In this document: positions 59,298-62,471 of the stretch, in pieces | Numbering within the stretch: the stretch's first letter is position 1 | How the letters are laid out: every line of letters starts with the position of its first letter | Source: Pseudovibrio brasiliensis | GTDB taxonomy: Bacteria > Pseudomonadota > Alphaproteobacteria > Rhizobiales > Stappiaceae | NCBI RefSeq assembly: GCF_018282095.1 | Contig: NZ_CP074126.1 | Location: 4,500,341 to 4,564,340, forward strand | Direction: 5' to 3' | DNA: 64,000 nt | Notes under the pieces: model-generated | Told to the model about the DNA's origin: nothing | Database searches by the model: none | What the model saw: only the letters and a program-made list of their open reading frames with translations | Position numbers and translations under genes: made by a program

Positions 59298-60560
59298 ATG
59301 ACCATGGCGGTATCGTTAGACATCGCGCACAAATCCGCTGATCCGGCGGCGACCAGCGCAGCAAATTCCACTCCTGCAGCAGATCCGGTGCAGGAAGAAA
59401 AGCCATCCCTTATCGGCCTCAGCCGTGAAGAGTTGGGCAATGCTCTTGCTGCAGTAGGTGTCCCAGAACGTCAGATCCGCATGCGCGTGAACCAGCTGTG
59501 GCACTGGCTCTACGTTCGCGGCATCTCTGACTTCAGCAAGATGAGCAACGTCTCCAAAGACCTGCGCACCAAGCTGGACTTCGCATTCACCATCGCCCGT
59601 CCGGAAATCGTCACCGAACAGATCTCCGTAGACGGCACCCGCAAATGGCTGTTCCGCTTCCCATCCCGCGGCGCTGGTAAACCGGTTGAGGTAGAAACTG
59701 TCTACATCCCGGAAGAAGACCGCGGAACGCTCTGCATTTCCTCTCAGGTTGGCTGTACTCTCACCTGCACCTTCTGCCACACCGGCACGCAGAAAATGGT
59801 TCGCAACCTGACCGCTGAAGAGATCCTCGCACAGCTGATGCTCGCTAAGGACCGTCTCAACGACTTCCCGGATGCAGATGCACCGGAAGGTGGTCTGGAC
59901 GCATCCACATCCAACCGTCGCCGCATCACCAACATCGTGATGATGGGCATGGGCGAGCCGCTTTACAATTTCGAGAACGTCAAGAAAGCGCTTTTGATCG
60001 CATCCGATGGTGATGGCCTGTCCCTTTCCAAGCGCCGCATCACTCTGTCAACATCTGGCGTAACTCCAGAAATTGCACGCACCGGTGACGAAATCGGCTG
60101 CATGCTGGCGATCTCCCTACACGCGGTCAACGATGAGCTGCGCAACGAGCTGGTGCCGATCAACAAGAAGTACAATCTGGAAACGCTGCTTCAGGCATGC
60201 CGTGACTATCCGGGCCTGTCCAACGCAAAGCGCATCACCTTCGAATACGTGATGCTGAAAGGCGTCAACGACAGCCTCGAAGATGCGAAGAAACTGGTAC
60301 AGCTGCTCAAAGGCATTCCGGCAAAGATCAATCTGCTGCCGTTCAACCCATGGCCGGGCTCTCCATATGAGTGCTCCGATTGGGAACAGATCGAAGAGTT
60401 TGCAGACGTTGTGAACCGCGCAGGCTACGCTTCTCCAATCCGTACCCCACGTGGCCGCGATATCTTCGCTGCCTGTGGCCAGCTGAAGTCCGCTTCTGAG
60501 CGTCTCCGTAAATCAGAGCGTGAAGCTCTTGAGAAAGCCCAGACCCAGGGCGACGCCTAA
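59298..60560 (+). CDS. rlmN: 23S rRNA (adenine-C2)-methyltransferase RlmN
   Basis: Radical-SAM enzyme that methylates A2503 of 23S rRNA, and A37 of some tRNAs. The 420 residues contain the cluster motif [15 protein letters not shown], and a late conserved cysteine (AACGQL) that carries the methyl intermediate. An A- and P-rich extension of about 35 residues precedes the core; a second ATG two codons in could be the start. A terminator follows. Confidence 0.95.
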
Positions 60561-60584
60561 CCACGGCTCAGCAATAATCATTCA

Positions 60585-60620
60585 AAAGGCTGGTGATTGA
60601 GATAAGCGCCGGCCTTTTTT
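60585..60620 (+). terminator. terminator of rlmN
   Basis: AAAGGCTGGTG and CGCCGGCCTTT form a long stem with wobble pairs, followed by TTTTTT. Confidence 0.85.
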
Positions 60621-60694: not shown

Positions 60695-61813
60695 ATGACC
60701 GACAAAGCACATCCATCACAAAAGAACGCCACAACCACAGGCATGAAAGGCAAAGGGTTCTACAATAAGAACTCCGCCACACAGCAAGCCACCATTGCCT
60801 ACGTGTACCCATGGCTACACGAAGCTGTCGGCAACCTGCCAATGCCAACAAACGGATCACCACTCCGATTTATCGATTACGGATGTTCTGAGGGAGCCAA
60901 CTCCATGCAAATCATGGCTCAGCTCACGGAAGCGACCAGACAGCATGGCACCAATTCAGTTCAGACAATCCATAGCGATCTGCCCAGCAACGACTATTCC
61001 ACCCTACTCCACGCCATCGGTAACCGCACCCAGCCTCCCTATACTGATCCAACCGTTTTTGGCAGCATCGTTGGCGGATCTATGTTCAACCAGCTGCTGC
61101 CTCACGGCTCTGTGCATCTGGCGACGTCCTTCAATGCCACAGTATTCCTCTCTGAACGCCCGCTTGAACGCCTACCCGACTACGTTATGCCCAACGGCCC
61201 AAACCTCTCAACTGAGAGAGGCTCTATCTCAGCGCAAGATAAGGAGGTCTGCGAGAAACAAGCCGCCCATGATCTGGAAACATTTCTCAAAGCACGTGCA
61301 AACGAACTCGCCCCCGGCGGCAAACTCATGCTGCAAACTGTCGGCAGAAATGAACATGTCTCAACCGCAGATGGGATCGTAAACCTATTCAACCTGTCTC
61401 TGCTCGATCACGTCGCCGACGGCTCAATCTCTCAAGATACCTATGAGCGCTACTATCATCCCGTCTATATTCGCAGCCTGAAACAGCTCACAACACCCGT
61501 AAAACCTGAGAGTGGGACGTTGTCTCACCTGTTCACCATCGACAAAGCAGAATGTTACGAAACACCGGTCCCCTTCGTAGAGCAATACAAGCAAGACAAT
61601 GATGCTTCCGCCTACGCCCGGCAAATGGTGAACTTCTATCGAGCTTTCACCGAAGCCCCCCTGAGAGCAGCCCTCTCACATCTCCCAAACACCACAGAGC
61701 TCCTCGACAGCATCTATGCCCGCGGCGAACACCGCGTCCGTGAAGCCCCCCACCTCTACGACTTCCACTTCATCAGCGTCGCCATGCTGCTGACAAGGAC
61801 GGAGAATGGGTGA
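60695..61813 (+). CDS. SABATH-family SAM-dependent carboxyl methyltransferase
   Basis: A 372-residue protein whose motifs match the SABATH family, best known in plants (salicylate, jasmonate and benzoate methyltransferases). GKGFYNKNSATQQ is at residues 19-31, the SAM loop DYGCSEGANS at 61-70, SDLPSNDYSTLL at 94-105, GGSMFNQLLP at 127-136 and SVHLATSFNA at 139-148; the family's ALH-type cap region follows. It probably methylates a carboxylate of a small acid. The neighbours give no hint of substrate. No ribosome-binding site is clear. Confidence 0.85.
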   Translation: MTDKAHPSQKNATTTGMKGKGFYNKNSATQQATIAYVYPWLHEAVGNLPMPTNGSPLRFIDYGCSEGANSMQIMAQLTEATRQHGTNSVQTIHSDLPSNDYSTLLHAIGNRTQPPYTDPTVFGSIVGGSMFNQLLPHGSVHLATSFNATVFLSERPLERLPDYVMPNGPNLSTERGSISAQDKEVCEKQAAHDLETFLKARANELAPGGKLMLQTVGRNEHVSTADGIVNLFNLSLLDHVADGSISQDTYERYYHPVYIRSLKQLTTPVKPESGTLSHLFTIDKAECYETPVPFVEQYKQDNDASAYARQMVNFYRAFTEAPLRAALSHLPNTTELLDSIYARGEHRVREAPHLYDFHFISVAMLLTRTENG

Positions 61814-61985
61814 TACAGGGCATTTCTTAGATAAATAACTGGCGATAGCTACTACTATGGAGCACCGCTGCTGTTTGCTGCATACCCATCTATTGCCTGC
61901 AATCTTATTTTTACAGGCAATTGCTGGTATCTGTTGTGTCTTACATGCTCATTTTTCAAGTAGTGAAAGCTCTAAAGAACTTCAA

Positions 61986-62338
61986 ATGGAAGCCACGTTA
62001 GAAATCCAGCAAAAAGAGCTCTGCTCCAAACACTCTGCAGAATTTGTCTCTTCTTCCAGCACTTCAAAAGTTGGAATATCTCGGAATGTCAGAGAGAGAG
62101 AGTATTGCCAATCAACGGTTTACGTCTCCCACCCGTTGGAGACACCAATGGTTGGTATATTTATGCAGGCGAAGAACTATCATCTAATCCAGACTTTTTC
62201 GTCCCCTTACATACCTTACATCTGGACGAATGGTGTCCCTCAATAAGAAAATACCTAGGGCTTGGTCCCGGTTAGCGCTTTCTCGTAGCTGGTGATTATG
62301 AGGACGTTTGGTTCGATGAGAGTTTACTGAAGAGCTAA
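61986..62338 (+). pseudogene. broken Imm33-like gene
   Basis: Two reading frames together resemble a protein of about 117 residues. The first frame gives LCSKHSAEF and [13 protein letters not shown]; then the match continues in another frame from about 62099 with [44 protein letters not shown] and KYLGLGPG, a TAG stop at 62273-62275 where related proteins have Trp, then RFLVAGDYEDVWFDESLL. The frame changes in an AG-repeat tract at 62091-62100. I recall such proteins as Imm33-like; the family name is from memory. It looks non-functional. Confidence 0.6.
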
Positions 62339-62471
62339 GCAAGCTACATGAAAGCTCAGCGCATCCGTAGCCTCAAATTTCAGAAACTTTCTACACTTCC
62401 ATTGTGTTGTGATAAGCAGCCCCCACATTCAACACGGACTTCCTGACTTCACAGATATAAAGGATTGCACA

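What the first reader, a model, noticed from the sequence alone, without database searches (positions are those of the whole stretch)
60695..61813. A plant-like SABATH methyltransferase in an alphaproteobacterium
Five separate SABATH motifs are present in order, including SDLPSNDYS and GGSMFNQLLP, which closely resemble plant salicylate/jasmonate carboxyl methyltransferases. The family is sparse in bacteria as far as I know. A marine, host-associated bacterium that methylates a plant- or alga-like acid would be of ecological interest. The gene is intact, with no neighbours that explain it.
Basis: partly seen in the sequence, partly recalled or inferred. Interest (0 to 1): 0.6.

Follow-up and report, generated by a model that had tools for sequence, protein, structure and literature searches.

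The report
Bacterial SABATH methyltransferase, altered active site
A Pseudovibrio bacterium carries a relative of the plant enzymes that turn acids such as salicylate into methyl esters, but it belongs to a bacterial branch with a changed acid-binding site, so what it methylates is unknown and nothing marks it as a plant gene.

Summary
Window 60695-61813 (+) is one intact 372-aa gene of the SABATH/Methyltransf_7 family (Pfam 134.9 bits, cut-off 29.8), under purifying selection. The 'plant-like' reading is not supported. The nearest solved relative is mycobacterial fatty acid O-methyltransferase (E 1.2e-27), not plant salicylate methyltransferase (7e-15). In trees the protein lies in a bacterial clade, 'A' (35 rows), apart from plants, the FAMT group and a third bacterial group; the order of these four is unresolved. 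The host is a Pseudovibrio. The family is rare in the phylum (4 of 397 sampled genomes) but common locally (11 of 16 in the genus, 38 of 87 in the family). Clade A keeps the carboxylate Gln (Q30, 35/35), has Phe/Tyr instead of the carboxylate Trp, and an invariant Asn147 where plants have Tyr/Phe. Most likely it is a SAM-dependent carboxyl methyltransferase of a small acid with a re-made acid clamp; the substrate is unknown. A clade-A paralogue (46%) sits in a conserved cluster with a benzoate-CoA-ligase/diazotase-like fusion and a formate/nitrite transporter, hinting at aromatic acids.

The parts
60695..61813 (+). SABATH/Methyltransf_7 methyltransferase gene, 372 aa, clade A
   Evidence: tree; dN/dS
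60782..60784 (+). codon of Gln30, counterpart of the carboxylate-binding Gln (SAMT Q25, LAMT Q38)
   Evidence: Alignment; Q in 35 of 35 clade-A rows
60974..61000 (+). SDLPSNDYS motif (residues 94-102), including Asp95, which is Asp in all 80 aligned rows
61073..61102 (+). GGSMFNQLLP motif (residues 127-136); Met130 replaces the Phe seen in the plant, FAMT and C groups
61133..61135 (+). codon of Asn147, invariant in clade A (35/35); Tyr/Phe in plants, Trp in the FAMT group, Thr in group C
61145..61147 (+). codon of Phe151, at the place of the carboxylate-binding Trp (SAMT W151, LAMT W163)
   Evidence: F 28, Y 7 of 35 in clade A; W 6 of 6 plant rows
60584..60618 (+). hairpin and T-run between rlmN and the gene, probable terminator, so the gene is likely transcribed apart from rlmN
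   Evidence: Fold -17.7 kcal/mol, z -2.97; the consensus scan, limited to loops of 3-8, did not list it and found no promoter-like site just upstream of the gene
59298..60560 (+). rlmN gene, conserved left neighbour (context only)
   Evidence: TIGR00048 394.6 bits, cut-off 290; the methyltransferase is the next gene in 8 of 8 syntenic Pseudovibrio loci

Best explanation
A stand-alone, SAM-dependent carboxyl O-methyltransferase of the SABATH family that makes the methyl ester of a small carboxylic acid. Shown here: family, intactness, purifying selection, conserved SAM-site residues (Tyr23, Ser27, Asp61, Gly63, Asn69, Asp95, Ser129), a bacterial clade of its own, and a changed carboxylate site. 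Inferred: the acid is held by Gln30 and Asn147 instead of Gln and Trp, and the methyl group is passed directly to the carboxylate as in other SABATH enzymes. Substrate guess: an aromatic acid of benzoate/anthranilate size somewhat more likely than a medium-chain fatty acid, from the cluster of a 46%-identical paralogue only.
For: PF03492 134.9 bits; homology to FAMT and plant SABATH structures; SAM-site residues conserved in 34-35 of 35 clade-A rows, Q30 35/35, N147 35/35, F or Y at 151 35/35; NG86 dN/dS 0.056-0.086 against four orthologues; beside rlmN in 8 of 16 Pseudovibrio genomes. Aromatic hint: paralogue in a four-genome cluster beside a benzoate-CoA ligase family protein (TIGR02262 394.7 bits, cut-off 375.25).
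Against: In plant LAMT the W163F and H162A mutants have negligible activity (passage of PMC10420828, citing Petronikolou 2018), and this protein has Phe and Val at those places naturally. No substrate, product or expression data. The one structure model was useless (mean pLDDT 37), so the role of Asn147 rests on alignment alone. The paralogue's context need not carry over to this gene, and the window genome lacks the fused ligase of that cluster.
Confidence: 0.6

Rival explanations
1. It is a fatty acid O-methyltransferase like mycobacterial FAMT, making medium-chain fatty acid methyl esters.
For: Nearest solved relative of the single sequence and of the clade-A profile; FAMT is described as active on C8, C10 and C12 fatty acids and their 3-hydroxy acids (passages of PMC9744835).
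Against: Positions fixed in the FAMT group (R132, W151, Q154, W155, 6 of 6 rows each) are G, N, G/V/A and F/Y in clade A; FAMT-like proteins exist in the same order and fall in another clade.
Confidence: 0.2
2. It is a plant- or alga-derived salicylate/jasmonate-type methyltransferase gained by horizontal transfer.
For: Motifs resemble plant ones; the AU test does not reject plants + clade A as one side of the tree (p 0.625; 78/31 support in the careful tree).
Against: Plant rows form one clade at 100/100 and clade A another at 100/100; 11 clade-A rows of Pseudovibrio form one group within a wider bacterial clade; GC 53.5% against 51.9% for the window; carboxylate Trp replaced.
Confidence: 0.04
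3. The acceptor is not a carboxylate: a SABATH N- or O-methyltransferase in which loss of the Trp marks a new acceptor.
For: The Trp is replaced in all 35 clade-A rows; plant SABATH members include N-methyltransferases (CkTcS, CkTbS, xanthosine methyltransferase; titles).
Against: The plant N-methyltransferase rows also keep this Trp (W in 6 of 6 plant rows), so its loss is not the mark of N-methylation; Gln30 is kept in clade A but only in 3 of 6 plant rows.
Confidence: 0.15

Closest known systems
Mycobacterial fatty acid O-methyltransferase (FAMT, PDB 5f2k/5f2n/5f2o)
   Same: Same family, 368 against 372 residues; best solved match (1.2e-27, 100 bits); Gln of the carboxylate site shared
   Different: Different clade; Arg132, Trp151, Gln154 and Trp155 of the FAMT group all replaced
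Plant salicylate and loganic acid carboxyl methyltransferases (SAMT 1m6e, LAMT 6c8r)
   Same: Same family and motif order, SAM-site residues, Gln25/Gln38
   Different: Trp151/Trp163 is Phe, SAMT Tyr147 is Asn, Phe130 is Met; separate clade
Group C bacterial members (30 rows, 21 of them from the window's own order)
   Same: Same Pfam family, similar length
   Different: Ala instead of the Gln, Thr instead of Asn69 and of Asn147, His at 150 (30 of 30 each), Tyr 18 or Trp 12 at 151; separate clade

Membership tests
SABATH / Methyltransf_7 (PF03492) | Profile match over the curated cut-off across most of the protein | tested here: met
   134.9 bits against 29.8, profile 14-335 of 335
SABATH / Methyltransf_7 (PF03492) | SAM-site residues of solved members (SAMT Y18, S22, D57, N65, D98, S129; list recalled) | tested here: met
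   All six identical in the window protein
SABATH / Methyltransf_7 (PF03492) | Carboxylate clamp Gln + Trp | tested here: inconclusive
   Gln30 present; Trp is Phe151 in the window, Phe/Tyr in 35 of 35 clade-A rows; the clamp also varies elsewhere in the family (3 of 6 plant rows lack the Gln)
SABATH / Methyltransf_7 (PF03492) | SAM-dependent methylation of a small acid or N | not testable with these tools
   No biochemistry
Plant SAMT/JAMT clade | Groups with plant members in a tree | tested here: not met
   Falls in clade A, 100/100, beside a plant clade at 100/100; plants + A as sisters is not excluded
Plant SAMT/JAMT clade | Salicylate-site residues Tyr147, Met150, Trp151 of SAMT (list recalled) | tested here: not met
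   Asn147, Val150, Phe151
Mycobacterial FAMT | Groups with FAMT in a tree | tested here: not met
   FAMT and three rows of the window's order form their own clade, 100/100

The most novel reading that the evidence does not exclude
Clade A is an alphaproteobacterial SABATH branch with a re-invented acid clamp (Gln30 + Asn147 instead of Gln + Trp) that caps aromatic acids as methyl esters. One branch of it works in a nitrite-fed diazotisation cluster (benzoate/aminobenzoate-CoA ligase fused to an AvaA6-like diazotase, thioesterase, exporter, formate/nitrite transporter) in Pseudovibrio, a genus with denitrifiers (recalled), and the window enzyme is the stand-alone sister acting on a related aromatic acid.
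Probability: 0.12. Interest if true: 0.65.

Novelty: new variant of a known kind. Interest (0 to 1): 0.4.

Why it matters
SABATH enzymes are known mostly as plant scent and hormone enzymes. A bacterial branch that works without the carboxylate Trp would show that the family's acid recognition has been solved more than once, and its product (a volatile or signalling methyl ester from a genus often found with sponges and other marine hosts, recalled) could be looked for directly by headspace analysis. The listings of six searches of the open-access library showed no paper on bacterial SABATH members other than FAMT. Three of these listings were capped at 20-25 of thousands of hits, and most subscription journals are not held, so this is weak evidence of absence.

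Tried and rejected
Structure model: AlphaFold on window + four orthologues (alignment A4) gave mean pLDDT 37.1, pTM 0.29; not used, and no fold search was run.

Plant origin by tree: unsupported, but the deep order is a star: plants + A p 0.625 with a log-likelihood 4.39 higher than the free quick tree; in the careful tree plants + A is present at 78/31, plants + FAMT group p 0.375, plants + group C p 0.368. The tree program warned of long branches meeting and of odd letter make-up in several rows, plant rows among them.

Neighbourhood as a guide to the window gene's function: led nowhere. In 8 of 8 syntenic Pseudovibrio loci it follows rlmN. In 13 fetched regions of a second genus of the family, relatives of a YcjX-like, a DUF697, a VWA_CoxE and an MFS gene occur in 13, 11, 10 and 13 of 13 (names from one Pfam-scanned member each); none of these four is biosynthetic, and the other neighbours were not scanned. 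L041 (Lachnoclostridium), returned as a relative, has no Pfam match and was dropped. Phages: no match; plasmids: 3 records, 24-31% identity. NCBIfam: no family for the window protein at E up to 1. A motif check on two plasmid copies picked up no motif. Promoter scan: no site just upstream of the gene, counts as in shuffles.

Rows left out of the trees: duplicates (L007, L037-L040, L016), L041, matches beyond the loci fetched, and L094-L098, L105 and L107. The 75-row tree also leaves out plant 3b5i, L012, L017, L018 and L106 for long branches; the 36-row tree is a hand-picked 36 of the 80.

Full report
WHAT IS THERE. The ORF at 60695-61813 (+) is intact, 372 aa. Pfam Methyltransf_7 (PF03492, SAM dependent carboxyl methyltransferase) scores 134.9 bits over residues 55-368, cut-off 29.8. 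NCBIfam has no model for it at E up to 1. It is the only such match in its genome at E <= 0.001. Against solved structures the best matches are fatty acid O-methyltransferase 5f2o/5f2k (E 1.2e-27 and 2.2e-27), then plant SAMT 1m6e (7e-15) and other plant members. With a profile of 31 clade-A sequences FAMT is again first (153.8 bits; SAMT 107.0).

WHOSE GENE. Orthologues at 85-95% identity are in Pseudovibrio denitrificans, P. ascidiaceicola and two Pseudovibrio strains without a species name, so the window is from Pseudovibrio (Stappiaceae, Hyphomicrobiales in NCBI's taxonomy). PF03492 is found in 11 of 16 genomes of the genus, 38 of 87 of the family, 34 of 397 sampled from the order, and 4 of 397 sampled from the phylum, the window's own genome among them each time; 0 of 14 control genomes. 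A clade-A profile finds 16 of 387 genomes sampled from the class, of which three score like clade A (605.6 bits for the window's own genome, 571.4 for G1024, 448.7 for G1101) and the rest 171 bits or less.

TREE. 80 rows (quick IQ-TREE, LG+C20): 35 clade-A rows lie on one side of a branch (SH-aLRT 99), six plant rows on one side (100). Clade A holds 14 rows of the genus, 19 of a second genus of the family and 2 of other families. A careful tree of 36 of these rows gives clade A 100/100, plants 100/100, FAMT group 100/100, group C 100/99 (bootstrap/SH-aLRT). The order of these four is not resolved: plants + A is in the best tree at 78/31, plants + FAMT group p 0.375, plants + C p 0.368; on a 75-row set plants + A gave p 0.625. 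So the gene is a member of a bacterial clade. A recent plant origin has no support; a deep plant/clade-A sisterhood is not excluded, and no algal or fungal rows were at hand.

ACTIVE SITE. On an alignment of all 80 rows: SAM-site residues are conserved (Tyr23, Ser27, Asp61, Gly63, Asn69, Asp95, Ser129). The carboxylate Gln (SAMT Q25, LAMT Q38) is Gln30, 35 of 35 in clade A, 6 of 6 in the FAMT group, 3 of 6 in plants, Ala in 30 of 30 of group C. The carboxylate Trp (SAMT W151, LAMT W163) is Phe151; clade A has Phe 28, Tyr 7. Position 147 is Asn in 35 of 35 of clade A, Tyr/Phe in plants, Trp in the FAMT group, Thr in group C. Position 130 is Met 34, Ile 1 where plants, FAMT group and C have Phe. 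In LAMT, H162 and W163 bind the carboxyl group and the H162A and W163F mutants have negligible activity (passage of PMC10420828 read, citing Petronikolou 2018; the original was not read). The window protein has Val and Phe there. Either the acid is held differently, with Asn147 (four residues before Phe151) the obvious candidate, or the acceptor differs. The roles of SAMT Gln25, Tyr147, Met150 and Trp151 in salicylate binding are recalled (Zubieta 2003; paper not held).

SELECTION AND LOCUS. NG86 dN/dS against four orthologues is 0.056, 0.064, 0.076 and 0.086 (dS is about 1 for three of them); a fifth, more distant one has dS 2.7, saturated. The gene is the next one after rlmN (TIGR00048) in 8 of 16 Pseudovibrio genomes. 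In five others rlmN is followed directly by genes that otherwise lie beyond the methyltransferase (G005, G006, G007, G010, G015); two are rearranged (G003, G014) and one contig ends (G013). Between rlmN and the gene a hairpin with a T-run folds at -17.7 kcal/mol, z -2.97; a consensus scan did not list it, nor any promoter just upstream. GC is 53.5% against 51.9% for the window.

FUNCTION. Shown: family, integrity, selection, conserved SAM site, altered acid site. Inferred: methyl ester formation from a small acid. Substrate: not known. The only contextual clue comes from a paralogue 46% identical. In three Pseudovibrio genomes (L073, L074, L111) and G1024 of another family (L108), a clade-A gene ends a run of a 1066-1074-aa AMP-binding protein, thioesterase, EamA exporter and formate/nitrite transporter, divergent from SDR, GST, Pyridox_ox_2 and SDR genes. 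Pfam names come from members in L073, L074 and L111; the L108 genes are placed by 64-85% identity to these. The transporter passes Pfam's cut-off (L073) but not NCBIfam's (L111, 129.6 against 232.3). The AMP-binding protein of L111 meets the benzoate-CoA ligase family model, whose best stretch is the N-half (394.7 bits, cut-off 375.25); relatives of that half lie beside kynA in the five Aminobacter plasmid rows listed (one looked at). The C-half alone has as best NCBIfam model AvaA6 3-aminoavenalumate diazotase, 311.8 and 344.8 bits in two genomes against 138 and 155 for the next model, but far below that model's 975 cut-off. AvaA6/CmaA6-type enzymes use ATP and nitrous acid (passages of PMC10777205). 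The full-length fusion was found in 3 of 87 family genomes and 1 of 387 class genomes (two candidates scored per genome). The window genome has a relative of the N-half only, 52% identical, 364.0 bits and so just under the benzoate-CoA ligase cut-off, next to an enoyl-CoA hydratase family gene and an acyl-CoA dehydrogenase-like gene. So an aromatic acid is a reasonable first guess for clade A, no more.

KNOWN OR NEW. Family known; mycobacterial FAMT is a known bacterial member. The window protein matches no NCBIfam model, and the listings of six literature searches showed no paper on such bacterial members other than FAMT (the first three capped, subscription journals mostly not held). One listed review was checked for the terms and treats plant SABATH enzymes only in the passages shown (PMC6730481). 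I rate it a new variant of a known kind: same family and probable chemistry, different acid site.

Noticed in passing
L111:518-10454, L073:2-9971, L074:8546-18500, L108:9001-18840: Conserved cluster, four genomes of two families: benzoate-CoA-ligase/AvaA6-diazotase-like fusion, thioesterase, EamA exporter, formate/nitrite transporter, clade-A SABATH, with divergent SDR-GST-Pyridox_ox_2-SDR; possible nitrite-fed diazotisation of an aromatic acid.
   Followed up: partly
window 61820-62440: In the window strain the YdjM-like gene that follows the methyltransferase in L037-L040 is replaced by about 0.6 kb found in none of the other 15 Pseudovibrio genomes.
   Followed up: partly
L075:7390-9790 and L076:9135-10265 (G003), L017, L018: One Pseudovibrio genome (G003) has five family members: a tandem clade-A pair, a third clade-A copy, and two very divergent long-branch copies that fall in group C.
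   Followed up: no
L012, L063, L106: A small, fast-evolving further bacterial group (3 rows), two of them with a 'SHWLS' motif; its place in the tree is unsure.
   Followed up: no
L130 (Novosphingobium resinovorum plasmid pSA2, 5007-6068): A SABATH relative (30.5%), annotated hypothetical, overlaps the end of an LLM flavin oxidoreductase gene and lies about 3 kb from an aromatic ring-hydroxylating dioxygenase gene on a conjugative plasmid.
   Followed up: no
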